Of a stretch of 64,000 nt of DNA, positions 1,786-61,934 are shown one piece after another. Under the pieces are notes generated by a model. It ran no database searches, was not told the DNA's origin, and was given only the letters and a program-made list of their open reading frames with translations. Location: NCBI GenBank assembly GCA_024803745.1, contig JANJXV010000043.1:25001-89000 (forward strand), given 5' to 3'. Origin of the DNA: Megascapheus bottae. Lineage: Eukaryota > Chordata > Mammalia > Rodentia > Geomyidae. Every line of letters begins with the position of its first letter. Within the stretch, counting starts at the first letter, position 1. Position numbers and translations under genes: made by a program.

Positions 1786-1951
1786 TAACCGAAATCGACC
1801 TGACCAGAAAAAAACATCCCACCGCCACATTGTAATCTGAACTGGATCAATAGAAACCCAAAAAAGGATCCTAAAGGCAGCCAGGGAAAAGGGTTCAGTA
1901 ACCTATAAAGGAAAACCAATCAGAATAAGCCCAGACTTCTCACCAGAGACC

Positions 1952-2209
1952 ATGCAAGCAAGAAGTGACTGGAAGCATATATGTCATGCCCTTAAGTCAA
2001 ATAACTACCAACCAAGAATACTGTACCCAGCTAAGCTCTCATTCATAACTGAGGGAACAATAAAAACATTCCATTCCAGGGGGAAGCTGCAACAATATGT
2101 CGCAACAAAACCAACACTACAGAGAGTTCTCAAAGAGGTTCTATACATAGAAAACCAAAATAAATGCAATATAGGGAAAGAAATGGCACCTAAACAGCAT
2201 ACCATCTAA
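1952..2209 (+). pseudogene. L1 ORF1 C-terminal fragment
   Basis: The fragment encodes the C-terminal domain of the L1 RNA-binding ORF1 protein, which normally forms trimers and coats L1 RNA. The frame ends in MAPKQHTI and a stop at 2207-2209, as does the copy in the larger L1 at 46126-46722. The coiled-coil and RRM regions are missing. It is followed by a ~48-base spacer and then the ORF2 start, as in an intact L1. Confidence 0.85.
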
Positions 2210-2257
2210 GGACCACAAGAACTGTCAAGACACAGGCCCAAATAAAAGCTTTTCAAA

Positions 2258-24946: not shown

Positions 24947-25370
24947 TGCCGGGGCCAGCCGGCAGCAAACCAGGGTTCGCAGATTGGGATTCCTGAAATA
25001 GGGGCAAGGACTAGGAAAAATTAAAAGAGAGACAAACAGACGGAGTGTGGGAGGACTACAGCCCAAGTCAGCAGTCCAAGAAGGCTGTGAGCTCCAGAAT
25101 GCCTCCTAAGACTGTCCTGTTTATTTTAAGTTCCGACCTTAAATACTCTTCTTAAAACTAGGGAACTGCCAGAGGCTACATTCATACAAAATAGTAAACA
25201 AGTCACATATAGGATAAATGAGAAAGGATTAACATTGCTTAAAGTTATTCTGATAAGAACTGATTGACATTGCTTAAAGTTATCCTGATCAGAGTTACTT
25301 CCTTGTGTATACAGTTGTGTAGGTCCAAGGTCAGGTCCAAGGTCATTGACCCCACAGTCGCTCCCCAACA
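24947..25370 (-). repeat. 3' LTR of outer provirus
   Basis: Minus-strand LTR starting TGTTGGGG and ending CCCCGGCA, nearly identical to 37181-37602. An AATAAA signal lies on the minus strand at 25120-25125 (TTTATT on plus), followed by a TTTAAGG-type sequence upstream in transcription order. Confidence 0.93.
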
Positions 25371-25391
25371 TCTCCCCCGTCTTTCTTTTAA
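25371..25391 (-). other. Polypurine tract of outer provirus
   Basis: On the minus strand the bases next to the LTR are a purine run ending GACGGGGGAGA. It would prime plus-strand synthesis during reverse transcription. The third provirus has the matching tract at 57688-57711. Confidence 0.8.
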
Positions 25392-26299
25392 AAGATGCGG
25401 ACTTGCTTGTCTTAGGTTGGGTGGATCGCTGACTCTGCCTTACCCGTCATGGGGAACTTCTTCAGATCAAGCTGAAGGCCCTGTCTTAGGTTGGTCAGAG
25501 AGCATCCTCTCTTATCCCGTCCTTGACTGCGATTCCTATCGGGGGGGAATTCATCCATCTGGGGCTTCGATCTGCGGAGTTGTTCGATTGGTGACTGTTG
25601 CAGATGTGACCATTGGACGGGTACTGGCCATAGGTGTTGATTTGTTCCCAGCCATAGCTTCAGTTGTCACTTTACTTGGAGTAGAAACAACAGCAGTTGG
25701 CTTGATATTGGCTGTTGGTGGATCTGAAGTGCTGGCAATTCCTCGTTCTTCAGAAACTGCAGTAGTTTTCAACGTGATCTGTCTCTGCTGTTCTGGGACC
25801 TTACTAGTAGGTTCTTGAGGCTCTTTGCTCTAAGTGCCTCCCTTGATGCTCTCAGAGTTCTCTCTCCAATCTATTGATTCGACCTTCTTAATGGGACTTA
25901 AGAGCTGTCATACGAACATCAAGTTCATTTTTTTTTTGCTGATCTAATGTTCCATTCTCCCCCCTCTTTAAAACAATGCAATAATTCAAACCTAAATGAT
26001 TTTCTTGATTAAACCTTGAAAATGTTCACTCACTCATTTACACACATTCATACTCAAAGATTTTAAAGTGCACAAAATTAATATTGGCCATTCATTTTCC
26101 GGAAGTTTGTGTCAAGAGAGCTTTGCCAATTTTACTCTTGCAGGTGAGAACCAGGTTCAATACAAAACTTTAGAAAAACCTTAAGGATCCATATTTAAAA
26201 CTGGTACCAATTTCAAAGACAAAACTGGACAAGAAAAAATATGTAACACGAACAAGACAAAGAAACAGAGACTTTTACACTTAACACAAAAACATGAAC
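25392..26299 (-). other. Non-coding region in env position of outer provirus
   Basis: About 0.9 kb between integrase and the 3' LTR. Frames are short and show no signal peptide, fusion peptide or transmembrane-subunit motif, so this is not env. The part at about 25965-26226 matches, in inverted genomic orientation, the plus-strand block at 30843-31255 in the inner provirus, including a 20-base-plus stretch containing CCTGGTTCTCACCTGCAAGA. The 183-codon plus-strand frame at 25264-25818 crosses the LTR edge and is antisense to the provirus, so I do not call it a gene. Confidence 0.75.
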
Positions 26300-27232
26300 T
26301 CAGGTCTTTTCCCCATTACTGGATGCATTACTGGAGGGTTGGGGGTGAAGGTCCAGTGAGTCGCTGCTTGGATGACCACTGTCACTCTCCACAATCCGAA
26401 CATAGCTTTCGGGCAGCCAGCGGGCATCATTTTCTTCCTGTGAGAAAACACATGCATGCCCTCTACCCCAGGTTAGAACAGGATCTGGTCCTTGCCAAGC
26501 ACCAGTTAGGGGATCCTTCCATTTTACTAAGGCAAAAGCACGCTGCTCTCTTTTTTCCCAGAATCGCTGAGCAGCAGATAAATTATTTGAATCCAAATTC
26601 AAAAAATTTAAAACAAATAAAGCATGATTAAGTATATTCACAGGGGTAGCGGGATATGATTCTCCTTTCTGTATTTTAGCAATTTGATGTTTTAATAATC
26701 CATTAGCTCTCTCCACGATGCCTTGACCTTGAGGATTGTAAGAAATGCCTGTAATATGAGAGATATTATAGGAATGGCAGAAGGATTGAAATGCTCGGCC
26801 TGCATAGCCAGGGCCATTATCTGTTTTTATTTGCGAGGGAATCCCCATCACAGCAAAACATCGAATGCAGTGAGAAATACAATGTTTAGTAGCTTCCCCA
26901 GCAAGGGGGGTGGCCAGGATAAAATTAGAATAAGTATCTACAGTAACATGAACATATTTTAATCAGCCAAATGATGGAACATGTGTGACATTCATCTGCC
27001 AAATGTGATTAGAAAGCAGTCCTCGTGGATTTATACCTAAATGAGGAGCTGGTGAGAAGGGCACACAGTTGGAGCAAATTTTAACTATTTGACGTGCCGC
27101 TTCTCTAGATAATTTAAACTGTCGGCGCAAGGCTCGCCTGTTTTGATGATGGATGGCAGGTGACTGCTTAGCAAGTTCAACTTGAGTTAAATAAACTCTG
27201 GTGGCAGAATCAGTAACTGCGTTACCTTCACT
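26300..27232 (-). pseudogene. pol: Betaretrovirus-like integrase, inactivated
   Basis: Integrase inserts viral DNA into host DNA. The minus strand carries the zinc-binding N-terminal region (His-x-His and Cys-x-x-Cys parts near 27080-27180), a catalytic core and a C-terminal DNA-binding domain. The last uninterrupted frame is 26300-26851, with the core TDNGPGY aspartate and the VERANG glutamate present. The codon at 26990-26992, where the first catalytic aspartate is expected, reads Asn. An in-frame TGA lies at 26963-26965 just after it, and the frame is also broken near 27232. The protein would be non-functional. Confidence 0.88.
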
Positions 27233-28500
27233 TCAAGGGCCAGGAAGATTAGTGTGAGCCCGAACGAAGCCAAAAAAACAGGGGTGGTTGCAAGAACAAA
27301 GCAAAGTTTGTACTTGGTGAAATTGGGTCTGGATATTGGAGTTAGTAGTTCCAATAAAAGGAACAGTTTCTATGACCTGAAGAGCACGAATTACATATTG
27401 ACTGTCTGAGTATAAGTTAAAGGGCTCGTCTTGTAACGGGATGAGGGCTTGTAAAACAGCCTCTAATTCTACCTCTTGGGCGGAGGAAAAACCCGTAACC
27501 CAAGATTGAGTTTTCCCATTAATGGTCAAAGCAGCCGTTCCATTAGAGGATCCATCTGTAAATACTAAAGCGGCAGAAGATAAAGGCGAGGCCCGTACTA
27601 TGGAAGGAAATAGGAACGTATGACACGCAGCAAATTGGAGAAGTTTGTTAGACGGGTAGTGATGCAAAATTTTTCCCGTATAATTGGCCCAAGCAATGGC
27701 CCAAGAATCGCAATGGGCGAATAGCCAATCTTGTTGTTGTAAATTATATGGGACACAGATAAAATGAGGTTCCTGACCTAAATAATTACTGCAATCCACT
27801 CGGCACATATGTATCAGATTAGCTACCAATTTGTAGTAGGGGGTCAGCACTTTGCCGGGTGTTGATGTAGATAAAGCCATAAAAGTGGGCCATCCTGCCA
27901 CAATACAGCAGTTGGGAAGTGAGAAGTAGCTAAAATGTAAACTCCCCATGGTTTAGAGTAGTCACAATAGGTCACTTGTTGCTGGAAAATTACCTTTTCT
28001 ACGATTTGGATGGCCCTCCTGGCGTCTGGATTTAAATTGCGCAAGGATGTAGGGTTGGTATCTCCTTTTAAGAGATCAAAGAGGGGTTTTAACTCTCCAG
28101 TGGAGAGCTTTAGATAAGGCCAAAGCCAATTTATATCTCCTAAAATTTGCTGAAAATCATGAAGAGTTATTAAGTGTGAAGTTTTTAATTGTATTTTTTG
28201 GCTTTTAAAATAGTGTGGGCCTAATATATGGCCTAAATACGTAAAAGGGGGGTGTTCCTGAACCTTTTCAGCTGCTATTATAAGGCCAAAGAGGCTCAGA
28301 TCTTGCTTTAGTTGTTCAAAGGCTTGTCGTACGACGATAGGGTCAGAACAAGCCAACAAGATGTCATCCATATAATGAACAATATAAACAGAAGAAAATT
28401 TTTCACAGGTCGAAGAAATGGCTCTGGCTACAAAACTTTGACAAAAAGTTGGGCTATTTGCCATGCCCTGTGGGAGCACAAGCCAATGATATCGCTTCAT
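27233..28500 (-). pseudogene. pol: Reverse transcriptase palm/thumb and RNase H, frame-disrupted
   Basis: Two overlapping minus-strand frames (27844-28500 and 27233-27949) cover the rest of reverse transcriptase and RNase H. The polymerase catalytic YMDD motif lies near 28365-28376 in HYMDDILLA. RNase H shows FTDGSS, a downstream Glu in VELEAV and YSDSQY, which are its metal-binding positions. The frame changes near 27850-27950 and again at the upstream end near 28500-28520. It is therefore broken although the active-site motifs survive. Confidence 0.9.
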
Positions 28501-29610
28501 GGGTTCTTTAAAATTAACAGAGGGACGCTGAAGGCAAAGTGCTTACAGTCTTGAGGCGCCACGGGTATAGTATAGAAACAATCCTTCAAATCTATAATAA
28601 TCTTGAAAGTATCCTTTGGAATTGCGATGGGTGAAGGCAAGCCGGGCTGTAAGGCTCCCATCAGTTCCATAGTTGCATTTACCTTTCTCAGATCCTGTAA
28701 CAGCCTCCATTTACCTGACTTTTTCTTTATAACAAAAATTGGAGAATTCCATGAAGAGTTAGAAGGGGCCACATGTCCCAAGTCTAGCTGTTCCTGTACC
28801 AGCTGCTGAACTGCAATGATCTTTTCTAGAGAGAGAGGCCACTGTTCGACCCATACCGGTTCTTCAGAGAGCCAATTTATGGGATCAGCAGGAGGGGCAG
28901 GACAAACTACATCCCCCGTTAAAGAATACCCTAATCCTTGTCTCGGGGGGTGAGACTGGGGTTGGAGTAGCTCTGGCTCTCCCTGTGCTGCTCGGCCTAG
29001 TCCCCTAAAGGGGAGGAGGCCTTGATCAAGTAACTGCTTAGTGACCGCAGCACTAGGACTAAACATATACACTCCCATTTTTTCCATGATATCACGACCC
29101 CATAAATTAATTGGCAGATGATCCAGGACAAATGGCTGAAAATGACCTGAGTGCCCTTCCTCATCTCTCCAAACAAGGATCACACTGCTCTGCTGTGGGT
29201 CAGTTGCTTGCCCAATCCTCTGTAGGGAAGTCATAGAGGTTGTCATTGGCCATTGGGCTGGCCAATGCTTTTTAGATATTACAGACACATCCGCTCCTGT
29301 GTCTAATATTCCTTTAAAGGGTTTTTCTTGTATAAATGTAGTCATCTCAGGCCTCTCTTGTTTTATGCTTTGTACCCAATAGATATCAGATGATCCAAAT
29401 CCTCTCTGTCCGCATGGGGCAGAAGAATTAGCAGTATCCCCATGAGATAAAGGCACAAGTATTAGTTGTGCTAATTTTTGACCAGCTGGGATCGATACCA
29501 CGTGTTTCGGGGCAGAGGCCATAACTTTGATTTCTCCAGTAAAATCCTGGTCAATTTTGCCAGGTGTAATCTGTATCCCTTTAAGGGCTGAGTTACTTCG
29601 CCCTAACAGC
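28497..29610 (-). pseudogene. pro-pol: dUTPase C-terminus, protease and RT N-terminus in one frame
   Basis: One long minus-strand frame. It starts with the C-terminal end of a dUTPase (GRSNSALKG and a GEIKVM block), a betaretroviral hallmark. Then comes an aspartic protease with active site [10 protein letters not shown], a linker with QGLGY resembling a G-patch, and the fingers of reverse transcriptase ([20 protein letters not shown]). The upstream part of dUTPase lies beyond the inserted provirus at 35086-35369. The frame ends at 28497 because of a one-base shift relative to the continuing RT. Protease and RT sharing one frame differs from the separate pro and pol frames usual in betaretroviruses. 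Confidence 0.88.
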
Positions 29611-29614
29611 AATC
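29611..29614. other. Left copy of 4-bp target duplication of inner provirus
   Basis: AATC immediately precedes the inner 5' LTR. The same AATC follows the inner 3' LTR at 35086-35089. A 4-base duplication is typical of gammaretroviruses. Confidence 0.85.
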
Positions 29615-30177
29615 TGTGTGAATGAAATCTCCCCATAATGTAATAGTAACCAATAGCAACCACTCGAAAGTACTTTCACAACACAAACATAATCCAAAGT
29701 CTTAAAAGAATGGCCTTTAGAATAGTGCAAGTAGCTGCAGTTTATACAATGGGCTGGAAAAACAGCCAACAGGATGTGCAGTTTGAGTTGGTTCGAGTCA
29801 GTGAAACTGTTCCTGAATAAGAGGAGGAAATTCCAGGGATAAAACAATAATATGGCCAGAAACAAGACATGCAGTCTACTGCCTGCTTAACCAAGTGAAA
29901 ATTCAATAAACCCCTAGCTGAGTCTTACCTAATGTGATTATAATCAATCATTAATCAATCATTACCCTGTAACTATGCTTCTGCTTCTGTAACCTGCTTC
30001 AGCCACCCATAAATATCACCCTCTCCCCAGCCTAGGCGCGCAAGTCTCCTAGGAGATCTTGTTGCCCCCGGGTTCCTGAATAAACCTCTTGCTAATTGCA
30101 TCCGACTGCGTGGACTCGCTGTTCCTTGGGAAGGGGGCTCCGTCTGGAAGACATCCCGCTGAAGCGGGAGTCTAACA
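29615..30177 (+). repeat. 5' LTR of inner provirus
   Basis: Begins TGTGTGAATG and ends GTCTAACA. A TATA-like ATAAATA lies near 30009, an AATAAA signal near 30079-30085, and a GC-rich U5 follows. It has the U3-R-U5 layout of gammaretroviral LTRs and matches 34531-35085 almost throughout. Confidence 0.93.
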
Positions 30178-30179
30178 TT

Positions 30180-30197
30180 TGGAGGTCCCACCGAGAT
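30180..30197 (+). other. Primer-binding site, tRNA-Gln type
   Basis: TGGAGGTCCCACCGAGAT, two bases after the LTR end. From memory this is the primer site complementary to the 3' end of tRNA-Gln, as in GLN-type murine gammaretroviruses. Confidence 0.85.
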
Positions 30198-30670
30198 AGG
30201 AGACCCCCACCCAGGGACCACTGACCCACCTTCGGGAGGTAAGCTGGCCAGCAAATTTCTGTTGTCTTTTGTATGTCCTGTCTTATGTTAAGAGTATTTC
30301 TTTGTATGTCCTGTCTTATGTTAAGAGTATTTCTGGAATCTGTGACTCGGCCGTGTCAATCTGTATCTGGTCAATCTGTATCTGGCGGACCCATGGAGGA
30401 GCTGACGAGCTCGTACTCCCGACCGCAGCCCCTGGGAGACGTCCCTGAGGCATCTAGGGTCAGATTTCTGACCCGTCTGGTTTCCCCTTTTGGGGCTTCG
30501 CCCCAGTCTGAGGACTCTTCAGTCCAGCTGGTAAGGGAAACGTCTGGGTTTCTTCCATTGGGGGCCCGATTTTTCGGTGCCCCCAGTGTATCGGAAGGAT
30601 ACTGTTGGTCGAGGGAACGGCTTTTGCCCCTCCCTGACCGTCTGAAAGCCGCGCGGTAGGTTAAGGGACC
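30198..30670 (+). other. Gammaretroviral leader / packaging region
   Basis: Contains GAGGAGCTGACGAGCTCG, CTGGGAGACGTCCC and GGGGGCCCGATTTTTCGG, which follow the order of leader and packaging sequences in murine leukaemia-type viruses. A ~32-base unit (TTGTATGTCCTGTCTTATG onward) is tandemly doubled at about 30268-30331. A 128-codon frame through it (30273-30659) looks incidental. Confidence 0.75.
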
Positions 30671-30842
30671 AGTCTGTTTGTTTTGTTTCTTGTATGTCTG
30701 TTTTGTTATGTTTTACTCGGAGTCTAAAATGGAACAGTCTGAGACTGCTGCCATGCATGTCATCAAAATTTGGAGTACTTAAAGGTCTCTGCTTCTGTCT
30801 TGTTTTGTGAGGTGTTTTTTTATTGTATGGTTTTGTTTTCAA

Positions 30843-33190
30843 AATTGGTACCAATCTTAAATATGGATCCTTGCAATTTTTGTGTGTGGATTCTGGGCAG
30901 TTGTAACAAGCCCTAGAAAAATAAATCACTGCTAAGTTGCCTTGTAAAAAGTTTTGTTCTGAACCTGGTTCTCACCTGCAAGAGTAAAATTGGCAAAGCT
31001 CTCTTGACACAAACTTCCGGAAAATGAACGGCCGATATTAATTTTGCGCGCTTTAAGATCTTTGAGTATGAGTGTGCGTGAATGAGTGAGTGAACATGTT
31101 CAGAATTAAATTGTCAGCATGCTGTATAAAACAATGGATAAATTTATACTTGAAACAAAAAGGCAATTGGGTAAATCTAAGTCTAAACTTCAAGAAATTA
31201 GGTTAAAATGTTTTACAATGTCTCAAAGAGTAATTGCATTGTTTTAAAGAGAAACTGGTAAAAAGTATTTTTTCTAAAGTAGAAAAAGTATTTTCTAAAT
31301 GAAATTTACATTAATAATTTGATATTAAAATGCACAGAGCTGTTTACATTGTAAACATTGTATCCTGTTTAATCCAGAGGTATTAGGGAATTTGGAATCT
31401 ATTCCCTTAAGTTGAAATTTGGAGATAAATATTAGGAATTAAAATGTAAAATTTATTTATTAATGTCAGAGACCTTACCTATCTTTCAAAACTGTCTAAG
31501 TAATCAAATGCTAAGAGAAAGGATGGGAAAACTTAGGATAGTCCTATGTGACCATCTTTGGGGTTGAGAGGTGAACTGGCAAAGGTGCAGCTCTGGGTAA
31601 ATAAGCTGGAATGAAGGCTGTTCACTTAACCTGGTCAGGTGGACTGAGATCCACATCTTCGCTCTTTTTCTTTGCAGACTGACACTGAAAATCTGATGGT
31701 AAAATCTGGGTAATATGATTAGTATTTTAAAAGGAATAAATATTTAAAAGTTTATCTCTGTATAATTTGGGTTCATGCTACTGCATTGCAATTGGATGTA
31801 TTCTAGAAAAAGAAGGAAACTAAGTCCAGATTTAGACTTTTGGTGCACTGATGATGTTTACAGTTCTTGCATTGAGGAAACTGTTGCTGGAGTTTTGAAA
31901 CCTGGAAAGAAAGGGAGTTCCTTGGGCCCCTAAAGATTTTTCAAATGCACATAAAGGCCAAGTTTAAGCAAATATCAGTAAAAATTTTTAAAGAACATTG
32001 GAAATGGGTTCCTGAACAAAGTTTGAAATTGAAATTATCCTAAATGTTTGTTTAAACAAGAAAAATTAGGACTACCAAAATGGTTGCTCAATTGCTATTT
32101 CAGCTTATTCTTGCAAGTTACTCTATAGCAATTTGCAGCAGGTCTATGGAGAAGGACAGCAGATCCTCATTCAGATGTAAATTTGGCCCTCACCAAGTTC
32201 CAGGTAAGGTCATGCTTAGAGACTATTTCTGAGTTGACCACCTTGTTGCTTCTAATTGGAGTAAAGTGGCCTTTGTAGGACTCACTGATCTGAAAGCCGC
32301 AGTTTTGAGCCAGCCCGGGCAAAGCAAAGTCCCTGTGAGACTGTGGTGTCTAATCTGTCAGAGTGCTATTGAGAGTTGCTTTGGAGCTCCAAGTGGCAGA
32401 GTGCTGGCTCTGAGCTGAAAAGCTGGGGGACAGCACTCAAGCATCAGGCCCAGGACTCAGTGGCAGAGTGCAAGCCTTGAGCTGCAGAGCTGAGGAGAGG
32501 CACTCAGGCCCTGTGTTTGGGACTTAAAAGTGGCAGGGTGCTAGCCTTGAGCTGGAGAGCTGAGAGACAGCACCCAGACCCTGAGTTCAAGTCCAGCAAC
32601 CAACAAAGTGAAATGCCAATGGGACATTTATTCCTGTGTGGAGAGACACTACTGGGACAATGAAGCATCCAAATGCAGTAAGCCACAGCTTGGATGGCAG
32701 AGGTGGTGTCAGATCCTAGAGTCATTTGTGCTTGGCCATTCAAAATTAATCAGAGCCGGGAGGTCATAGAATAGTTTGTAAGCATGCCTTACTAATGCCC
32801 ATGCCTTTCATACCTGGGCAGGAACTTGTCAATCATCTGTGATAGAGGATGGTTTAAAATCCTAACTGAGTGAAGTTTGATTTGACACCAGCCACAAATT
32901 CAGGGTGGATGTGACGCTTGCACCCCTATTATATGTTTAGATATGGCAACTGAAGCATAGAGTGCAGGGATTAAGTTCCCCAGAAAATCAGGAAAATGCC
33001 TTTGCAAGTGGGTGCTAAGTAAGCTACACTGTTGTAGCCAAAGAAAAAGTTTGTGCAGTTGTTAAATGCTTTACATGACCTCCAATTTGGAATAGAATAT
33101 ATGTAATCTTGACAGCCTCTTGGTAAAATAGGCTAAGTTTTCAGGGTCCCTGGCTAGGTATAGAGACAACGCCCCTGAGTCAGCCTGAAG
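30843..33190 (+). other. Non-coding block shared with env-position sequence of two other proviruses
   Basis: AT-rich, with stops in all frames. Part A (30843-31255) matches the minus strand of 25965-26226 in the outer provirus, with a 65-base insertion at about 30885-30950. Part B (about 32290-33190) matches the minus strand of 57838-58615 in the third provirus, including a shared SINE. In both donor-like elements the matching part lies between integrase and the 3' LTR. Here the block lies between leader and pol. Its relation to the betaretroviral family rather than to gammaretroviral gag is inferred from these matches. Confidence 0.8.
32395..32605 (+). repeat. SINE 3' unit expanded to three tandem copies
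   Basis: Three ~70-base units each begin with GTGGCAGAGTGC or GTGGCAGGGTGC and run to a CAGGCCC/CAGACCC end. They represent the ID-like right part of the common SINE. The homologous place in the third provirus (about 58460-58530, minus) holds only one such unit, so the expansion happened in the inner lineage. Confidence 0.8.
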
Positions 33191-33429
33191 AGTGGAGACT
33201 GCACTTGGGGGGAACGGCTACAGTTTCGAGTCTTCTGTGCCTGTCTAGAGAGTGCCAAGCCTTGTTCAATCTGGATACTAAAAGTTGCCACCCTGGTATT
33301 GTGCTCGGGTAAAGCAACTAGAAAAGCATTGGGAGAATTCACCAAAGTCAGGCCTTAGGTTAAGCTTCTTTAGAAATTTTGCAGGTGACCCAGCAGGAGG
33401 TGTGACATTCCATTGGAGCTACTGTGCTG

Positions 33430-34370
33430 CCGGATTCAACCACTACCTTACAATTGTTTACTGAGAGGACTGGAACTAAACTCTTGGTGATGGGACCCGA
33501 CCTGATTTGACAGACCACCCCCTTCAGGATGCTGAGCTCACCTGGTTCACGGATGGCAGTAGCCTTCTGGAAAATGGAGAGCAGAAGGCAGGGGCAGCTG
33601 TTACCACTGAGATTGAGGTAATTTGGGCTGGAGGGCTGCCCCCTGGAACATCGGCTCAGAAAGCGGAACTTATTGCCCTAACCAAGGCCCTCCAAATGGC
33701 TGAAGGTAAGAGGCTCAACATTTACCCGGATAGCCGATATGCATTTGCTACAGCTCACATACATGGGGAAATTTATAGAAGAAGGGGCTTACTGACTTCA
33801 GAGGGAAAGGACATTAAGAACAAAGCCGAAATTATAGCCCTGTTGACTGCACTATTCTTGCCCAAAAGACTGAGCATTATGCATTGCCCGGGACACCAAA
33901 AAGGGGAATCAATGGAAGCCAGAGGCAACCGCCTAGCAGACAAAGCAGCCCGGGAGGCTGCACTCCAGAGTAAGAGAACTCCACAAGTGCAAGTCCTCCC
34001 AATGACAGAAAAGTCCCTCTGTAACCTTCCCCCGCTCCCATACACTCCAGAGGATATTGAGTGTCTTAAGAAAATGGGGGCGGCCTATGACTCCAAGCAG
34101 AAATTATGGACTTTTGATGGAAAAACAGTTTGGCCCAAAAAGTGGACTTTTAAAATGAAGACTCTCATAGAGCGGCAGGAAAACTTTGGCCACTTCTTGG
34201 GAAAGGAGGAGGCTTTGCAACAAGTGGCTACCCAGTGCCCAGCGTGTGCTAGGGTGAATGCAGGACAGACTAAAATTGGACTTGGAACCAGAGTGAGAGG
34301 ACACCTCCCAGGTGTTCATTGGGAAATTGACTTTACAGAAATTAAACCTGGACAATACTTTTCTTAAAGG
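33430..34370 (+). pseudogene. pol: Gammaretroviral RNase H and integrase N-terminus
   Basis: The open frame 33507-34367 (286 residues) encodes gammaretroviral RNase H with [24 protein letters not shown] and NRLADKAA carrying the four expected acidic residues. The RT connection region upstream is recognisable from about 33430, but a stop precedes the frame. It continues into integrase: a zinc-domain part with CPACARVN and the start of the core ([11 protein letters not shown], first catalytic Asp). The frame stops at 34367 where a deletion joins pol to env. Confidence 0.9.
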
Positions 34371-34500
34371 ATGGTGATTTATGTGCTGCTTTGAAAGAGG
34401 AATGTTGTTTTTACGCTGACCAAACGGGAATTGTCCGGGAAACCATGGGCAAACTTAGGGAGCGGCTGACAGAAAGAGAGACCACTCTCATTGAATGAAA
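34371..34500 (+). pseudogene. env: Env transmembrane-subunit remnant
   Basis: About 40 codons directly after the pol stop correspond to the gammaretroviral TM ectodomain around the CX6CC cysteine cluster and the downstream conserved helix. It stops at a TGA near 34497. There is no signal peptide, surface subunit, fusion peptide or membrane anchor, so no envelope protein can be made. Confidence 0.85.
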
Positions 34501-34514
34501 GATTCCATTCAACC

Positions 34515-34530
34515 AGAAGAAAATGGGGGA
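34515..34530 (+). other. Polypurine tract of inner provirus
   Basis: AGAAGAAAATGGGGGA directly abuts the 3' LTR. Confidence 0.87.
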
Positions 34531-35085
34531 TGTGAGAATGAAATCTCCCCATAATGTAATAGTAACCAATAGCAACCACTCGAAAGTACTTTCACAACAC
34601 AAACATAATCCAAAGTCTTAAAAGAATGGCCTTTAGAATAGTGCAAGTAGCTGCAGTTTATACAATGGGCTGGAAAAACAGCCAACAGGTTGTGCAGTTT
34701 GAGTTGGTTCGAGTCAGTGAAACTGTTCCTGAATAAGAGGAGGAAATTCCAGGGATAAAACAATAATATGGCCAGAAACAAGACATGCAGTCTACTGCCT
34801 GCTTAACCAAGTGAAAATTCAATAAACCCCTAGCTGAGTCTTACCTAATGTGATTATAATCAATCATTAATCAATCATTACTATGCTTCTGCTTCTGTAA
34901 CCTGCTTCAGCCACCCATAAATATCCCCCTCTCCCCAGCCTAGGTGCGCAAGTCTCCTAGGAGACCTTGTTGCCCCCGGGTTCCTGAATAAACCTCTTGC
35001 TAATTGCATCCGACTGCGTGGACTCGCTGTTCCTTGGGAAGGGGGCTCCGTCTGGAAGACATCCCGCTGAAGCGGGAGTCTAACA
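34531..35085 (+). repeat. 3' LTR of inner provirus
   Basis: Begins TGTGAGAATG and ends GTCTAACA, followed by the target duplication AATC (35086-35089). It lacks 8 bases (CCTGTAAC) present in the 5' LTR. Confidence 0.93.
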
Positions 35086-35369
35086 AATCCAGCCACTCCC
35101 GGGGGAAGGGGGCCCAAGACCCCCGTGGGGAGAGCTTGTGTCCTCATCTCTGGGGTCAATACTGAGCAGGTGGAGGAACAGTGGTCCAATCCTGAGCTGC
35201 CAGGGGTGGCACGGAAGAGGCTGGAGACTGGTTTTGGGGGGTTGTTAGAAGATGTACTTGTGGCCGAGAAGAGGGAGGGACTGCCCCATGGTTTTGCGGG
35301 GCCAGAGGCTGGCCCCTTCTCCAGTTTGCCGAAAATGGGCGGCCATTGCGATTTGTTGCTGACTTGCAA
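35086..35369 (-). pseudogene. pro: N-terminal part of outer provirus pro/dUTPase frame
   Basis: A minus-strand frame overlapping the end of gag runs from 35369 into the inner LTR. It starts MQVSNKSQW and would continue as dUTPase on the other side of the insertion (29610 downward). It overlaps gag in another frame, as pro does in betaretroviruses, which use ribosomal frameshifting to express it. Interrupted by the inner provirus. Confidence 0.75.
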
Positions 35370-37039
35370 TCTTTAGCCCAGTGCTTCCCTTTACCACAGC
35401 GTGGACATGTGCCAGGTAATTTTTCTCTCTTTAACCTGGCCTGGCATGGGCATTGCGTCATCCAATGTCCTATTTGTCCACAAGAGAAGCAACGCCCTGA
35501 GGGTCTAGCATCCCGAGAATACCGCTGACCTCTATATTTTAGAAACTCAGTAACAGTCTTTCCTTGACTAGCGGCGGCTAAAGTAAGGCCTTGTACATGG
35601 GAGGGTCCAATATCAGCACACAGTGAAATAAAGTCCGTGATTTCTCCCTTATTCCTATGGGGTCTGATAGCCGCCTGACAGGTGGCGTTGGCATTTTCAT
35701 AGGCTATGTGTCTAACTATAATCTTCCTTGCATTCTCATCTTGTACTAGGCGGTCTGCAGTCTCCATTAATAGAGACAAAAATTCTAGATAAGGTTCATT
35801 CGGTCCCTGTTTAACTTCTACTAGATTTTTTGTACGATTGGAATTGCGTAACCTTTTCCAAGCCTCTCTCGTCGCAGCATTTATTTGTAAATAGGCCTCC
35901 TTTGCATAACCCAATTGATCTTCGGTGTTTTTATAGTTTCCCTCTCCTAACAACTGATCAACAGTGTAAGGCAGGTTCTTAGACCTATTTGTTTCAATTT
36001 TAGCCCGACACTGTGCAGTGAACTCTGTCTCCCATAATAAGTACTCTCCTGCACTAAGGCATGCTCTGGCAAGCCGCTTCCAGTCATTTGGGCATGCAAT
36101 ACCAGCACACGCGGCCTCCAATATTACTTGAGTAAAAGGGGCAGTTGGCCCATATTGGGAGCAGGCACTCTTTAAATCCTGTAATAGTTTAACAGGAACA
36201 GGTTGATGGTATACTTGTTCATCATGATCAACTAAACTAGGGAAGCATCGAGGCCCTGAAATATCTTCCCTCCCTCTAGCAGCCTGAGTCAGGTTTAATT
36301 GCGATGCAGTGTGCCTGGTTGTAGTGCCTGTTAAAAGGGACTTGTTCCTAGGGCTTTTAGGCTTGAAAGGTTGAAAAAGGGATTGGGGCCGTAAGGCTGC
36401 AGCCGGAGGCGGTGGGTGTGAGGGATAAGGTTTAGAATCAGACACCATAGTGGCCTGAGGGTCATATTTCTTTCCTACTTCTGGGGGGGCTCTCTGCTCT
36501 CTCCCCATTTTAGATAGTAGATGTAGGATTTCTTCTAACCTCTTTTCTATCGTAGCTATCCGGTCCTCCATCGGCTCATCATAACTTTCCTCCTTTATAT
36601 TCAAATTTGAATTCTGATACTCAGTATCGACTGGTTGTTGTTCCCTTTTCAAGATCTCACTTAGACGCTCTTGGGCTGCGGCGGCATATGGCTCAGCCTC
36701 AGGTTTTTCAGAAGGGTCCTTTAATTCATAAATTTCCCTTAATTCAAGATTAAGTTCAGCATTCTCATTTTGAGGATCTATGCATTCACTTACTAAATTC
36801 CAAACAGTAATAGCATCTACTGGGGTCTTTTCGGGGCCATATGCATTATAATATTCTTGAATTCCTTTTCCTATCCGGTGCCAGGTTTTTAGGAATTCCT
36901 CCTCTATAGACCTCGGGCATGCCTCCTTGAAAAACTGTAGGAAGCTCTGAAGCACCCCTTTTTCCACCCATGTTCCGTGGGCTTCAAGTAGGCCTGTTAA
37001 GATCGGTACATATGACGTATGGCTATTAACTAGACCCAT
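35156..37039 (-). CDS. gag: Gag polyprotein of outer provirus, intact frame
   Basis: A 627-residue open frame. I choose the Met at 37039 because it is followed by Gly (MGLVNSH), the usual myristoylation start, rather than the Met 13 codons upstream. Gag builds the particle: a matrix region, a proline-rich linker (YPSHPPPP), a capsid with a major homology region around QGPNEPYLEFLSLLMETADR, and a nucleocapsid with two zinc knuckles, CFSCGQIGHWMTQC and CPRCGKGKHWAKDC. The length fits an intact betaretroviral Gag. Downstream pro/pol is broken, so at most Gag could be made. Confidence 0.9.
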   Translation of the reverse strand: MGLVNSHTSYVPILTGLLEAHGTWVEKGVLQSFLQFFKEACPRSIEEEFLKTWHRIGKGIQEYYNAYGPEKTPVDAITVWNLVSECIDPQNENAELNLELREIYELKDPSEKPEAEPYAAAAQERLSEILKREQQPVDTEYQNSNLNIKEESYDEPMEDRIATIEKRLEEILHLLSKMGREQRAPPEVGKKYDPQATMVSDSKPYPSHPPPPAAALRPQSLFQPFKPKSPRNKSLLTGTTTRHTASQLNLTQAARGREDISGPRCFPSLVDHDEQVYHQPVPVKLLQDLKSACSQYGPTAPFTQVILEAACAGIACPNDWKRLARACLSAGEYLLWETEFTAQCRAKIETNRSKNLPYTVDQLLGEGNYKNTEDQLGYAKEAYLQINAATREAWKRLRNSNRTKNLVEVKQGPNEPYLEFLSLLMETADRLVQDENARKIIVRHIAYENANATCQAAIRPHRNKGEITDFISLCADIGPSHVQGLTLAAASQGKTVTEFLKYRGQRYSRDARPSGRCFSCGQIGHWMTQCPCQARLKREKLPGTCPRCGKGKHWAKDCKSATNRNGRPFSANWRRGQPLAPQNHGAVPPSSRPQVHLLTTPQNQSPASSVPPLAAQDWTTVPPPAQY

Positions 37040-37160
37040 AATTTTTACTCTGGACAATACAGCCTCCCGCTCTCTCACTCTCTTAAAATCATCTCTTAAC
37101 AGTCCTACGATGCGTTACTCACCACAGCAAGGTCCTCCACCGTCGTCCCAGATTTTCAGG

Positions 37161-37178
37161 GTCCCTGTTCGGGCGCCA
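37161..37178 (-). other. Primer-binding site of outer provirus, tRNA-Lys3 type
   Basis: On the minus strand the 18 bases read TGGCGCCCGAACAGGGAC, two bases inside the 5' LTR. From memory this is a perfect tRNA-Lys3 site, as used by MMTV-like and some other retroviruses. Confidence 0.9.
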
Positions 37179-37180
37179 GT

Positions 37181-37602
37181 TGCCGGGGCCAGCCGGCAGC
37201 AAACCAGGGTTCGCATATTGGGATTCCTGAAATAGGGGCAAGGACTAGGAAAAATTAAGAGAGACAAACAGACTGAGTGTGGGAGGACTACAGCCCAAGT
37301 CAGCAGTCCAAGAAGGCTGTGAGGTCCAGACTGCCGCCTAAGACTGTCCTGTTTATTTTAAGTTCCGACCTTAAATACTCTTCTTAAAACTAGGGAACTG
37401 CCAGAGGCTACATTCATACAAAATAGTAAACAAGTCACATATAGGATAAATGAGAAAGGATTAACATTGCTTAAAGTTATCCTGATAAGAACTGATTGAC
37501 ATTGCTTAAAGTTATCCTGATCAGAGTTACTTCCTTGTGTATACAGTTGTGTAGGTCCAAGGTCAGGTCCAAGGTCATTGACCCCACAGTCGGTCCCCAA
37601 CA
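37181..37602 (-). repeat. 5' LTR of outer provirus
   Basis: Minus-strand LTR TGTTGGGG...CCCCGGCA, 422 bases. The target duplication CAGTTG follows on the plus strand at 37603-37608. Confidence 0.93.
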
Positions 37603-39160: not shown

Positions 39161-40316
39161 TGCCAACCAACCAAACAACGGACAAAGGCCTCATATCTAA
39201 AATATATCAACAACTCAAAAAATTGAATCACTCCAAAACTAATCTCCAAAGTAACAACGATCGCATTAAAAAATGGGCCAAAGACATAAAGAGAGTCATC
39301 TCTGAAAAAGAAACAAAAATGGCCTATAGACACATGAAGAAATGCTCAACATCTCTGGTCATAAAGAAATGCAAATCAAAACAACTCTAAGATTCCACCT
39401 CACTCCAGTTAGAATGGCCAGGATCAGGAAAACGAATAATAACAGATGCTGGAGGGGATGTGGCCAGGAGGGATCACTACTACACTGTTGGTGGGAGTGC
39501 AAACTCATTCAACCACTATGGAAAGCAGTGTGGCAGTGCCTCAAAAGGCTAAACATAGAACTCCCCTATGACACTACTTGGCATTTACCTAACCATCCAG
39601 AAAAAAGGACATACTAAATCCACTAGCACAACAATGTTCATTGCAGCAATATTCACCATAGCAAAGATATGGAAACAACCTAGATGTCCCTCAGTTGATG
39701 AGTGGATCAACAAGTTGTGGTATTTGTATACAATGGAATTCTCTGCTGCTGTCAGAAAGAATGACATTGTGCCATTTGGTAGGAAATGGAAAGACTTAGC
39801 TAAAATCATATTAAGTGAAGTAAGCCAGAGTCAAGGGAACTTAGGCTCATTGGTCTCCCTCATTCGTCATAATCAGTAGAAACCTTGGGCTCTAGTAGCA
39901 GAGATCTGCAATAGAGCAAAATCTTGATACATAAGGCCATATAATGTGAAGCTAATTGAAAGGACCTCCAGGATATTGAAACAAAAGCCATATAATGAAT
40001 GATTGTTATCCTTAATGTATTATGTTGTCTCTCATCTCCTTTGCTGTCCCTTGGTTATCTCATATTGTTATAGTATCTCACTTTGTTATCTGATATATTG
40101 AATTTATTTGTATTTGGATATTTGAAATTTGATAGGAAAGGGGGGAAAACCAAGAAGGTGGGGGGTGTGGGGTGGAGGGAAATGGGTACCAAGACATGTG
40201 AAAGGGTATCAATGTATGTGAATTAATGCACCTTCTATCTGGCAAATATCATTTAACCCTTTTACTAATTACAATAAAAAAAGAAATGTTAAAAAAAATA
40301 AAATAAATAAAATAAA
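39161..40316 (+). mobile_element. L1 3' end, right arm of inverted pair
   Basis: Plus-strand L1 from within late ORF2 (ACCAAACAACGGACAAAGG) through the C-terminal frame 39568-39879 and 3' UTR to an A-rich tail at about 40280-40316. The last ~700 bases are the inverted copy of 38455-39160. Each arm has its own 3' tail, so these are two L1 copies head to head rather than one twin-primed insertion. ORF2 is frameshifted near 39390-39570. Confidence 0.85.
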
Positions 40317-57280: not shown

Positions 57281-57286
57281 ATCATA

Positions 57287-57687
57287 TGCCGGGGCCAACC
57301 GGCAGCAAACCAGGGTTCGCAGATTTTGATTCCTGAAACAGGGGGCAAGGACTAGGAAAAAATAGAAGAGAGACAAACAGATGGGTTTCAGGAGGGCTAC
57401 AGCCCAAATCAGGAGCCACAGCTTAAGAAGCCTGTAGCCCAAGACCGTAACCCAGTTTATTTCCAGTTCTGAATCTTGAATACACTTCTTTAAACTAGGG
57501 AACTGCCAGGGGCTACATTCGTACAAACAGTATCAAGTCTGAAATAGGTTGAATGAGAAGCTATCAAGTCCCAAACAGGTTAAATGAGAAGCTATTGACA
57601 CAGCCCAAAATCATGATAAGAGCTTACTTCCTTGTGTACTCAATTGTGCGGGTCCAAGGTCACTGACCCCACAGTCAGTCCCCAAAA
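57287..57687 (-). repeat. 3' LTR of third provirus
   Basis: Matches 61466-61887. On the minus strand its first bases read TTTTGGGG, so the terminal TG dinucleotide has mutated after integration. Confidence 0.9.
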
Positions 57688-57711
57688 TCTCCCCCATCTT
57701 TATTTTAAAAG
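57688..57711 (-). other. Polypurine tract of third provirus
   Basis: Minus-strand purine run ending GATGGGGGAGA next to the LTR. Same as in the outer provirus except one base. Confidence 0.8.
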
Positions 57712-58900
57712 AAACACAAGTGCAATTTTTTACTCTTTTCTATACCCCTAATTTATCCTGTCACATTTTCCAAAAATGACTTTGGTCCCTTGGTCTAACA
57801 GGGATTGATGGGCGGAGATTCAACTTCTGTGACTTCTTCAAGATGACTCAAGGGGTGTTGTATCTGTGCTTGACCAGGGACCTTAAGAAGCCTAGCCTGT
57901 TTTATCAAGGGGTTGCAAGGATTAGATATTAGGAACAACAATTTACTCCAAACTAGAGAGCATATTTGACATTTAACAACTGCACAAACCATCTTTGGCT
58001 ACAATAGTGTAGCTTACATAGCACCCATTTGCAAAGGCATTTTCTTGATTGTCTGGGGAACTAAATTTCTGCAACCTTAACAATACTTCAGTTGTCAGAT
58101 CTAAACAGATTAATAGAGACACAAGCCTCAGATCCACAAACTTTTCCTGAATTTGTGGCTGGTGTTAAAAATAAAAAATAAAAATTTCGCTCAATTAGGA
58201 CTTTAAACTACCCACTATCACAGAAGATAGACAAGTTCCTGCCCAGTTATGAAAGGCACGGGCATTAGTAAGGCATGCTTACAAACTATTCTATGACCTC
58301 CCGGCTCTGATTAATATTGAATGGCCAAGCACGAGTGACTCTAGGATCTGACACCATCTCTGCCATCCACGCAGAGGCTTTCTGCATCTGGATACTTCAT
58401 TGTTCCAGTAGTGTCTCTCCAAACAGGGATAAACATCCCATGGGCAATTCACTTGCTTGGTTGCTGGACTTGAACTCGGGGTCTGGGTACTGTCCCTCAG
58501 CTCTCCAGCTCAAGGCTAGCACGCTGCCACTTTGAGCTCCAAAACAACTCTGCCTCAATTAGCACTCTGCTGCCAGATTAGACACCACAGTCTCACAGGG
58601 ACTTGACCACCCAGGCCTCTGTTTTAGGCCCACAGTGCACCTTTTCAAACAAACAAACAAACAAACAAAAATAAAATAAAATAAAATAAAACGCAGACAT
58701 ACAGGGGGGTCAGCCGACTTCTACTTACCTCTGGAGGCCTTTGCTTTTCACCTGGGCATCTTTTACAAAAAAGGTTATTAAGAAGAGGGATGGTAAAGAC
58801 AAAATAATGTCACATATTAAATTGTGTAGAGTCAATGAATATGTTAAAAGGTCCCTACATAATAGTAAAAGGAGGAGAAACACAGCTCATATGAATGTGT
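57712..58900 (-). other. Non-coding block in env position, with SINE
   Basis: Stops in all frames. 57838-58615 matches, in inverted orientation, 32290-33190 of the inner provirus, including the same SINE (one ID-like unit here at about 58460-58530). An (AAAC)n/(AAAT)n run lies at 58646-58691. No envelope features. Confidence 0.78.
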
Positions 58901-58912
58901 GGAACAAGTGGA

Positions 58913-59412
58913 TCAGTAGCAGTCCCAATTGACATGCACAAATAACTGAGGTCCTTCCCACGTCGCAGGATGAACCACTGGAGGGTTGGGAGTGTAGGCC
59001 CAGTGAGTCGCTGCTTGGATGGCCACTGTCACTCTCCACGATCCGAACGCAGCGTTCAGGCAGCCAGCGGACGTCATTTTCTCTTGTGAAAAACACATAC
59101 ATGCCCTCGATCCCAGGTTAGAACATGATCGGGTCCAACCAAGCACCAGTTAGGGGATCCTTCCACTTTACTAAGGCAAAAGCACGCTGCTCTCTTTTTT
59201 CCCAGAACCTCTGAGCAGCAGATAAATTATTTGAATCCAAATTCAAAAAATTTAAAACAAATAAAGCATAATTAAGTATATTCACAGGGGTAGCGGGATA
59301 CGACTCTCCTTTCTGTATTTTAGCAATTTGATGTTTTAATAATCCATTAGCTCTCTCCACGATGCCTTGACCTTGAGGATTGTAAGGAATGCCTGTAATA
59401 TGAGTGATATTT
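58913..59412 (-). pseudogene. pol: Integrase C-terminal remnant
   Basis: The end of the integrase core (VERANGLLKHQIAKIQKG) and the DNA-binding C-terminus, closely matching 26300-26800 in the outer provirus. A frame change near 59120 splits it. The left end joins gag/dUTPase sequence near 59412 where about 5 kb present in the outer element is missing. Confidence 0.87.
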
Positions 59413-59453
59413 AAAATAAAGACGGGGGAGAGCATTTGTCCCCAACTCTGGGG

Positions 59454-61338
59454 TCAATACTGAGCAGGTGGAGGAACAGAGATCCAATCCTGCACTGCCT
59501 GGGGTGGCATGGAGGAGGCTGGAGACTGATCTTGGGGGGTTGTTAGAAGATGCACTTGTGGCCGAGAAGAGGGAGGGACTGCCCCATGGTTTTGCGGGTC
59601 CAGGGGCTGGCCCCTTCTCCAGTTTCCCAAAAACGGGCTGCCATTGCGATTTGTTGCTGACTTGCAATCTTTAGCCCAGTGCTTCCCTTTACCACAGCGT
59701 GGACATGTGCCAGGTGATTTTTCTCTCTTTTGCCTGGCCTGGCGTGGGCATTGCGTCATCCAATGTCCTATTTGTCCACAAGAAAAGCAACGCCCTGGGG
59801 GTCTAGCATCCCGAGAATGCCGCTGACCTTTATATTTTAGAAACTCAGTAACAGTCTTTCCTTGAGGAGCGGCAGCTAAGGTAAGGCCTTGTAAATGGGA
59901 GGGTCCAATATCAGCACACAGTGAAATAAAGTCCGTGATTCCTCCCTTATTCCTATGGGGTCTGATAGCCGCCTGACAGGCGGCGTTGGCATTTTCATAG
60001 GCTATGTGTCTAACTATAATCTTCCTTGCATTCTCATCTTGTACTAGGCGGTCTGCAGTCTCCATTAATCGAGACAAAAATTCTAGATAAGGTTCGTTTG
60101 GTCCCTGATTAACTTCTACTAGATTTTTTGTACGATTGGAATTGCGTAACCTTTTCCAAGCCTCTCTCGTCGCAGCATTTATTTGTAAATAGGCCTCCTT
60201 TGCATAACCCAATTGATCTTCGGTGTTTTTATAGTTTCCCTCTCCTAACAACTGATCAACAGTGTAAGGCAGGTTCTTAGACCTATTTGTTTCAATTTTA
60301 GCCCGACACTGTGCAGTGAACTCTGTCTCCCATAATAAGTACTCTCCTGCACTAAGGCATGCTCTGGCAAGCCGCTTCCAGTCATTTGGGCATGCAATAC
60401 CAGCACACGCGGCCTCCAATATTACTTGAGTAAAAGGGGCAGTTGGCCCATATTGGGAGCAGGCACTCTTTAAATCCTGTAACAGTTTAACAGGAACAGG
60501 TTGATGATATACTTGTTCATCATGATCAACTAAACTATGGAAGCATCGAGGCCCTGAAATATCTTCCCTCTCTCTAGCAGCCTGAGTCAGGTATAATTGC
60601 GATGCAGTGTGCCTGGTTGTACTGCCTGTTAAAAGGGACTTGTTGCTAGGGCCTTTAAGCTTGCCTAAAGGTTGAAAAAGGGATTGGGGCCGTAAGGCTG
60701 CAGCCGAAGGTGGTGGGTGTGAGGGGTAAAGTTTAGAATCAGACACCATAGTGGCCTGAGGGTCATCTTTCTTTCCTACTTCTTGGGGGGGCTCTCTGCT
60801 CCATCCCCATTTTCGATAGAAAATGTAGCATTTCTTCTAACTTCTTCTCTATCATAGCCATCTGGCCCTCCATTGACTCATCATAACTTTCCTCCTTGAT
60901 ATTCAAACCTGAATTCTGATACTCAATATCTACTGGTTGTTGTTCCCTTTTCAAGATCTCTCTTAGACTCTCTTGGGCTGCGGCATATGGCTCAGCCTCA
61001 GGGTTTTCAGAAGTGTCCTTTCATTCATAAAGTTCCCTTAATTCAAGATTAAGTTCAGCATTCTCATGTTGAGGATCTATGCATTCACTTACTAAATTCC
61101 ATACATCAATAGCCTCTACTGGGGTCTTTTCGGGGCCATATACATTATAACATTCTTGAATTCTTTTTCCTATCTGCTGCCAGGTTTTTTGGAATTCCTC
61201 CTCTATAAACCTTGGGCATGCCTCCTCGACAAACTGTAGGAAGCTCTGAAGCGCCCCTTTTTCCACCCATGATCCGTGGGCTTCAAGTAGGCCTGTTAAG
61301 ATCGGTAGAAATAACCTATGGCTATTAACTTGACCCAT
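59454..61338 (-). pseudogene. gag: Gag of third provirus, interrupted
   Basis: Starts MGQVNSH at 61338 (Gly2 for myristoylation). The first frame stops at 61021. The middle continues at 60954-60763, and the capsid-nucleocapsid part is open at 60749-59454 (431 residues). That part includes the major homology region and zinc knuckles CFSCGQIGHWMTQC and CPRCGKGKHWAKDC. Apart from the breaks it is very similar to the intact Gag at 35156-37039. Confidence 0.88.
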
Positions 61339-61445
61339 AATTTTTACTCCTGACTATACACTCTCTTAAGATCCTCTCTTAATAGTCCTACGATGTGTAA
61401 CTCACCACAGGGAGGGGTCCTTCACCTTCGTCCCAGATTTTCAGG

Positions 61446-61463
61446 GTCCCTGTTCGGCCGCCA
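61446..61463 (-). other. Primer-binding site of third provirus
   Basis: Minus strand TGGCGGCCGAACAGGGAC, one mismatch from the Lys3-type site of the outer provirus. Confidence 0.85.
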
Positions 61464-61465
61464 GA

Positions 61466-61887
61466 TGCCGGGGCCAACCGGCAGCAAACCAGGGTTCGCA
61501 GATTGGGATTCCTGAAACAGGGGGCAAGGACTAGGAAAAAATAGAAGAGAGACAAACAGATGGGTTTCAGGAGGGCTACAGCCCAAATCAGGAGCCACAG
61601 CTTAAGAAGCCTGTAGCTCAAGACTGTAGCCCAGTTTATTTCCAGTTCTGAATCTTAAATACACTTCTTTAAACTAGGGAACTGCCAGGGGCTACATTCG
61701 TACAAACAGTATCAAGTCTGAAATAGGTTGAATGAGAAGCTATCAAGTCCCAAACAGGTTAAATGAGAAGCTATTGACACAGCCCAAAATCATGATCAGA
61801 GCTTACTTCCTTGTGTACTCAATTGTGCGGGTCCAAGGTCACTGACTCCACAGTCAAGGTCACTGACCCCACAGTCAGTCCCCAACA
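61466..61887 (-). repeat. 5' LTR of third provirus
   Basis: 422 bases. A 21-base segment (CACTGACTCCACAGTC region, 61838-61879) is duplicated relative to the 3' LTR. Confidence 0.9.
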
Positions 61888-61934
61888 ATCATAGATCGCA
61901 ATGCCATAGCAATTTCCTGAGTGCTCAGTTCTAG

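What the first reader, a model, noticed from the sequence alone, without database searches (positions are those of the whole stretch)
30843..33190. One non-coding module present in two unrelated retrovirus classes
A ~2.3-kb non-coding block inside the gamma-LTR provirus contains part A (also at 25965-26226, minus) and part B (also at 57838-58615, minus). In the two beta-type proviruses each part lies between integrase and the 3' LTR, in the same sense as that provirus. The order A then B fits a single ancestral module that replaced env, with each beta-type copy retaining a different portion. In the gamma-type element the module replaces gag to RT, giving a VL30-like chimera. This suggests recombination by co-packaging or template switching, or a captured host sequence that helps these elements spread.
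Basis: partly seen in the sequence, partly recalled or inferred. Interest (0 to 1): 0.86.

Follow-up and report, generated by a model that had tools for sequence, protein, structure and literature searches.

The report
Beta-retrovirus tail swallowed by gamma element
A 2.7-kb non-coding stretch that follows the polymerase gene in many copies of one class of fossil retrovirus also sits inside about 155 copies of a single chimera of an unrelated class, in place of most of gag and pol, and it was likely copied across when both RNAs shared one virus particle.

Summary
Parts A (30780-31251) and B (32327-33191) of the gamma-LTR provirus match, in sense, the stretch between integrase and 3' LTR of two beta-type proviruses. 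The host genome settles the main puzzle: 28 of 30 class II loci fetched with beta2's region carry A and B together, and fuller copies read integrase - pre - spacer - A - middle - B - tail - PPT - LTR. The window's two betas are deletion forms. The gamma block is longer than reported: it starts ~17 codons into gag and ends at ~33496, where the RNase H frame begins. Its two junction words occur 160 and 155 times genome-wide: one chimera, amplified. A word of the block's 3' end occurs 832 times and two old beta-type copies carry it, so the gamma element is most likely the recipient. A ~260-nt core of A was likely exchanged again later. This is a VL30/ETn-like non-autonomous element whose non-coding body has an identified donor. 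No coding relic, covariation or known export element was found; function is untested. Likely mechanism: co-packaging plus template switching.

The parts
29615..30177 (+). 5' LTR of the gamma-type element (target duplication AATC at 29611-29614 and 35086-35089)
   Evidence: LTR pair 97.7% identical; 5 differences in 555 aligned sites, K2P 0.009
30180..30197 (+). gamma primer binding site; the glutamine tRNA assignment is recalled, from no call
   Evidence: sequence read
30359..30451 (+). gammaretrovirus core encapsidation signal in the leader (below Rfam's gathering score)
   Evidence: Rfam RF00374, 59.7 bits (gathering 93), E 3e-8, model 1-101 of 101
30729..30782 (+). gag start, 17 codons then TAA at the junction; the myristoylation-type start in some sister copies is recognised from memory
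   Evidence: sister copies
30780..31251 (+). part A of the class II block
30896..31159 (+). A core, likely exchanged a second time between gamma and one beta group
31252..32326 (+). middle of the block, collinear (with deletions) in full beta copies
32391..32600 (+). tRNA-SINE-like units (about three partial copies) inside B; SINE label recalled
32327..33191 (+). part B
33192..33496 (+). 3' end of the class II block (not gamma pol); this copy lacks about 125 nt of tail before it (compare L002)
   Evidence: found in part in old copies L067, L068 and L075, two of them with beta pol upstream; a word of it counted 832 times genome-wide
33497..34367 (+). gamma pol remnant: RNase H and integrase zinc finger
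34531..35085 (+). 3' LTR of the gamma-type element
24947..25370 (-). beta1 3' LTR
25371..25963 (-). beta1-specific stretch between A and PPT, Ser/Thr-rich ORF of 92 aa, no Pfam
25964..26277 (-). part A in beta1, shortened
   Evidence: the A-plus-tail arrangement near full length in 39 of 40 scored candidates (itself included) and over 176-926 in one
26300..26962 (-). beta1 integrase
35156..37114 (-). beta1 gag
37181..37602 (-). beta1 5' LTR
   Evidence: pair with 24947-25370, K2P 0.017
57283..57689 (-). beta2 3' LTR
57690..57834 (-). beta2 tail up to the polypurine tract, homologous to gamma copies L002, L006, L010 up to the PPT region
57835..58604 (-). part B in beta2
58605..58943 (-). 'pre' piece that follows integrase in fuller beta copies; splice-donor-like AGGTAAGT near 58730
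58944..59411 (-). beta2 integrase remnant (pro-pol deleted before it)
59454..60836 (-). beta2 gag
61462..61890 (-). beta2 5' LTR
   Evidence: K2P 0.033

Best explanation
The block is the 3' non-coding region of a large class II (beta-type, ERVK-like) endogenous retrovirus family of this genome, and a 2.7-kb piece of it was likely copied by reverse-transcriptase template switching, in a particle holding both RNAs, into a class I (gamma-type) RNA between gag codon ~17 and RNase H, giving one chimera that now has about 155 copies. Shown: the same two junctions stand in 19 and 18 of 20 gamma loci examined, and both lie inside gamma coding sequence; in beta copies the same sequence is continuous beyond both ends and fills the space from integrase to polypurine tract. 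Inferred: direction beta to gamma; that the exchange happened in a co-packaged particle; that the chimera, which keeps LTRs, a packaging-signal-like leader and a PBS but only a remnant of gag and pol, was spread by proteins of another gamma-type virus. A second, younger exchange of the ~260-nt A core between gamma and one beta group is likely, direction unresolved. Function of the block is not shown; my first guess is a cis-acting RNA element in A core, since A is what the amplified lineages sampled here mostly keep.
For: Alignments of A and B. 28 of 30 loci from the beta2 query carry A core, B, tail and class II LTR in order; the other two are the window's beta2 (no A) and L031 (only the end of A). 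6 of 7 further class II loci (L059-L065, all but L063) show int end - pre - A - mid - B - tail. 5' junction word 160 and 3' junction word 155 genome-wide, reversed controls 0; 19 of 20 gamma loci show the same 5' and 18 of 20 the same 3' junction. The gamma RNase H word has 150 matches, so close relatives without the block were not seen. A word of the block's 3' end has 832 matches against 155 gamma junctions, and 3 of 36 exact ones listed on contigs C1-C5 lie by the exact gamma RNase H word. Two old copies with part of that 3' end have beta pol upstream: L079/L067 integrase (Pfam E 1e-19) and L081/L075 an RT piece (40% over 50 aa to beta1; Pfam silent). 27 of 34 exact A words on C1-C5 have an exact B word 1.38-1.73 kb downstream. 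A core: sites Bi=G but not Bii 47 vs Bi=Bii but not G 3 inside the block, 28 vs 130 outside, Fisher p 3e-23.
Against: The trees do not root themselves: with L080 as outgroup G is sister to, not inside, the beta clade (L081, L079, young betas), and the single-segment trees place L081 on the other side. L080's own context is unknown. Old copies are only three and were picked by an exact word in B. 39 of 96 exact B words on C1-C5 had neither junction word in the forms listed and were not examined as a set. No RNA, particle or helper was observed. The A-core likeness could also be constraint rather than exchange. beta1 keeps A but has lost mid and B, so most of the block is dispensable there.
Confidence: 0.75

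Rival explanations
1. The transfer ran the other way: the block arose in the gamma lineage and young and old beta elements took it up next to their polypurine tract.
For: G is sister to the beta clade when L080 is the outgroup; young betas end the homology at their PPT region, as a recipient that must keep its PPT would.
Against: In gamma the block interrupts coding sequence (gag codon ~17 to RNase H), betas hold extra continuous sequence beyond both ends (pre and spacer; past 33496 in L075), and a word of the block's 3' end has 832 matches against 155 junctions.
Confidence: 0.12
2. A third element or captured host transcript was the source, and both classes took it up independently.
For: No viral protein relic was found in the block; it holds SINE-like units and splice-donor-like and acceptor-like sites (58730, 31662-31677); 1 of 12 sampled B copies is not in a recognised ERV context.
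Against: Two old copies with beta pol upstream share the block's 3' end with the gamma element; none of the 12 sampled stretches was recognised as a host gene, though they were compared only with ERV parts.
Confidence: 0.1
3. The block is a cis-acting RNA element (export, dimerisation or packaging) selected in both classes, and the A-core likeness reflects constraint, not a second exchange.
For: 31020-31139 keeps 0.91-0.92 identity between lineages against a median of 0.78; 31015-31165 holds 5 perfect 8-nt palindromes, reached in 2 of 2000 Markov controls (stretch chosen after seeing it). beta1's lineage keeps A though it lost B.
Against: RNAalifold covariation is negligible: 2 of 59 pairs. 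Rfam finds only the gamma packaging signal and a chance-level hit in 30178-33480. The SPRE core motif is absent. G and Bi differ at 6 of 223 fixed sites in the block but Bii differs from each at about 50, which constraint alone does not explain.
Confidence: 0.25

Closest known systems
VL30 elements of mouse and rat (class I, non-autonomous)
   Same: 5-6 kb, LTRs and PBS kept, gag-pol not usable, no env, RNA packaged by other viruses (PMC4859993, passages)
   Different: VL30 bodies are described there as gag- and pol-related with stops; here gag-to-RT is a foreign class II non-coding block with single junctions
ETn elements (non-coding subclass of MusD, class II, mouse)
   Same: non-coding body, proteins supplied in trans (PMC2265474, passages; class II label recalled)
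   Different: here the element is class I and the donor of the non-coding body is identified as class II
Inter-class env exchange (SERV/BaEV, RD-114, PyERV)
   Different: those carry an env gene; this block has no coding relic found
CTE of type D viruses and RTE of mouse IAP
   Same: cis-acting export elements in class II elements (PMC1363727 and PMC8579622, passages); the place near the 3' LTR is recalled
   Different: no sequence or structure match shown here; no export test

Membership tests
Class II (beta-type) endogenous retrovirus | beta-type gag p10/p24, dUTPase-pro, integrase | tested here: met
   Pfam; named nearest Gag relatives are mostly ERVK Gag-like, best Dipodomys; integrase
Class I (gamma-type) element | gamma-type RNase H, integrase zinc finger | tested here: met
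Class I (gamma-type) element | 4-bp target duplication (size recalled for this class) | tested here: met
   AATC on both sides
Class I (gamma-type) element | gamma packaging signal in the leader | tested here: inconclusive
   RF00374 E 3e-8 over the whole model, but 59.7 bits is below gathering 93
VL30 | LTR/leader sequence homologous to mouse or rat VL30 | not tested
   no VL30 sequence compared; works-like claim only
VL30 | RNA packaged by a helper virus | not testable with these tools
   needs cells
ETn/MusD | class II LTRs around the non-coding body | tested here: not met
   leader and pol between the chimera's LTRs are class I and the target duplication is 4 bp; LTR sequence not compared with ETn
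CTE/RTE/SPRE export elements | sequence or structure match | tested here: not met
   Rfam none (CTE or RTE models may not be in Rfam), SPRE core 0 matches; export itself not tested

The most novel reading that the evidence does not exclude
A core is a portable RNA module that two unrelated retrovirus classes exchange repeatedly because it lets their RNAs pair, be exported or be packaged together: its perfect palindromes act as cross-class dimer sites, so the element itself drives co-packaging and its own transfer.
Probability: 0.15. Interest if true: 0.85.

Novelty: new variant of a known kind. Interest (0 to 1): 0.62.

Why it matters
Non-autonomous elements such as VL30 and ETn have unusable or non-coding bodies, and for ETn the origin of that body has been unclear (recalled). 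Here the donor of such a body can be named, both junctions are pinned, and the donor is of another retrovirus class. If the direction holds, non-coding 3' regions, not only env genes, cross the class I/class II border, and the recipient then amplified. The ~155 chimeras and more than a thousand donor-type copies make timing, direction and any selected core testable by comparison within one genome and its relatives.

Tried and rejected
Hidden env or other gene: ten long ORF pieces (nine chosen from five loci's list, one from beta1) gave no Pfam match better than E 0.03; a 94-aa piece of L080 and shorter ones were not given. Known RNA families in 30178-33480: only RF00374 and a chance-level lncRNA hit. 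SPRE core: 0 matches in the window at up to 3 mismatches. Conserved RNA fold of A core: no covariation support, 2 of 59 pairs. tRNA genes: none in the window. Viral contig scan for an exact 39-nt A word: 0. The conservation peak at 32700-32819 was set aside because the three old copies had been picked by an exact word there. Generic-repeat reading: rejected on the 12 sampled contexts. beta1 inside the gamma clade in one A tree: set aside, long branch and short row. A module-free gamma parent: not found by the RNase H word (150 against 155 junctions); a parent more than 3 mismatches away in that word would be missed. Rows dropped: trees and profiles left out rows short in the segment, and searches left out 14 near-identical beta rows (L037-L050). 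DNA searches of the genome score only 40 candidates, so those counts are lower bounds; pattern counts are whole.

Papers: eight searches of the held library showed no description of this exchange in the listings; most subscription papers are not held. Passages read in PMC4859993, PMC1363727, PMC10536682, PMC2265474, PMC8579622; others seen only as search listings.

Full report
Observation. The window lies in a 2.84-Gb genome whose nearest named Gag relatives are from Dipodomys (50% identity over 84% and 56% over 67% of the query), so the host is probably a heteromyid rodent (inference). Two class II proviruses lie on the minus strand. beta1 (24947-37602) is split by a class I element (29615-35085); beta2 (57283-61890) has lost pro-pol. 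The reported matches are real: A 92.9% over 155 nt, B 81.2% over 714 nt, sense to sense, with collinear flanking pieces. Pfam and solved-structure searches support both class calls.

What the class II family looks like. Querying the host genome with beta2's integrase-to-LTR region scored 40 candidates and returned 30 loci. In 28 of 30, A core, B and tail lie upstream of a class II LTR in the same order, with the middle between them (largely deleted in L025); the window's own beta2 lacks A and L031 has only A's end. Stretches further upstream show the 339-nt 'pre' piece after the integrase end in 7 of 8 (the eighth, L054, stops inside integrase), mostly with an internal pol deletion. In 6 of 7 further loci (all but L063, which lacks A) the order is integrase end - pre - ~195-nt spacer - A - middle - B - tail. 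beta1's arrangement, A plus a different 593-nt tail, matches near full length in 39 of 40 scored candidates (itself included, the others 95-97%) and over 176-926 in one.

What the class I element looks like. Leader with a gammaretroviral encapsidation signal (RF00374, E 3e-8, below the gathering score), a gag start and 17 codons, then the block from ~30780 to ~33496, then RNase H and the integrase zinc finger. The 3' edge was moved from 33190 to ~33496 because an old copy (L075) stays collinear with the gamma block through that point and then departs, just where the gamma pol frame begins. Gamma copies L002, L006 and L010 also keep the tail up to the nine bases that precede the polypurine-tract region in young betas. 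19 of 20 gamma loci show the same 5' junction (L018 is 5'-truncated) and 18 of 20 the same 3' junction (not L014, L015). Genome-wide the junction words number 160 and 155, with 0 in the reversed controls: one founding chimera, amplified.

Direction. A 28-nt word from the block's 3' end (within 33192-33496) has 832 matches, over five times the gamma junctions; of 36 exact ones listed on contigs C1-C5, 3 have the exact gamma RNase H word within 400 nt. Two old copies with part of this 3' end have class II pol upstream: L079/L067 an integrase, L081/L075 a piece of RT, 40% identical to beta1 over 50 aa (Pfam silent). In betas the sequence is continuous beyond both ends of the gamma block; in the gamma element it interrupts coding sequence. 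These point to beta as donor. Trees are consistent but not decisive. Without old copies, G and betas are separate clades in the middle and in B. With them, G is one clade (100/99), and with L080 as outgroup it is sister to a clade of L081, L079 and all young betas (97/90), whereas single-segment FastTree splits put L081 and L080 with G (0.98-0.994). L080 itself has no recognised context upstream.

Second exchange. Along the block, G and beta group Bi are 63-95% alike (the high end over the SINE-like part, ~32310-32420, and near 32719), but 94-96% through about 30896-31159, as alike as copies within a group. Fixed sites: inside, 47 join Bi with G against Bii and 3 join the two beta groups; outside, 28 and 130 (Fisher p 3e-23). 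The data suggest a younger exchange of this core; direction is open, and Bii's core is itself divergent. In the core tree G and Bi are still separate (92/87, 81/65).

Abundance and the generic-repeat alternative. An A word has 2115, a B word 2465 and the young-beta tail-PPT word 1785 matches, all controls 0. On C1-C5, 27 of 34 exact A words have an exact B word 1379-1726 nt downstream on the same strand; of 96 exact B words there, 53 have the exact tail-PPT word, 4 a listed gamma junction word and 39 neither (those 39 were not examined as a set). Of 12 B copies sampled from the exact matches listed first, 8 are class II, 3 old with the block's 3' end, 1 unclassified.

Function. Not shown. No Pfam domain in the ten pieces tested, no covariation, no Rfam match to the block itself and no SPRE match. 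31020-31139 is conserved between lineages (0.91-0.92, median 0.78) and 31015-31165 is rich in perfect palindromes (five of 8 nt; 2 of 2000 controls reach this; chosen after inspection). A cis-acting RNA role is my guess, at about one in four.

Comparison. The chimera works like VL30 and ETn: non-autonomous, non-coding body (PMC4859993, PMC2265474, passages). It is not ETn (class I leader and pol), and VL30 membership was not tested. Exchange of env between classes is documented (PMC10536682, passages); a non-coding 3' block with a named class II donor in a class I element was not in the listings of my eight searches.

Noticed in passing
window 1-1258: About 209 degenerate AGGGTT units, telomere-repeat-like, followed by ~272-bp repeat arrays between 3525 and 14299: looks subtelomeric or an interstitial telomere relic.
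   Followed up: partly
window ~59410-59431: At beta2's gag/integrase deletion junction stands a sequence like the element's polypurine tract in the opposite orientation, as if an inter-strand jump made the deletion (seen).
   Followed up: no
window 58730 and 31662-31677: Splice-donor-like AGGTAAGT just after integrase in beta2 and a strong acceptor-like CTCTTTTTCTTTGCAG in the middle of the gamma element's block.
   Followed up: partly
window 29615-35085: The gamma element sits inside beta1 and its LTR pair is the least diverged of the three (K2P 0.009 vs 0.017 and 0.033), consistent with the nesting order.
   Followed up: yes
window 35282-35330 and 59580-59628, minus: Gag/pro frameshift sites (Rfam RF01097) in both betas.
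   Followed up: no
window 1789-3526 vs 46546-44809; 39287-40299 vs 42925-41907: Long inverted repeats at 93-94% identity, unidentified.
   Followed up: no
L051, L053, L054, L056, L057, L058: These class II copies share an internal pol deletion that joins early pol to the integrase end, so a large part of the beta family may itself be non-autonomous; L055 has RT and integrase.
   Followed up: partly
L063 2041-2865: A gag piece in reverse orientation directly upstream of B in this class II copy.
   Followed up: no
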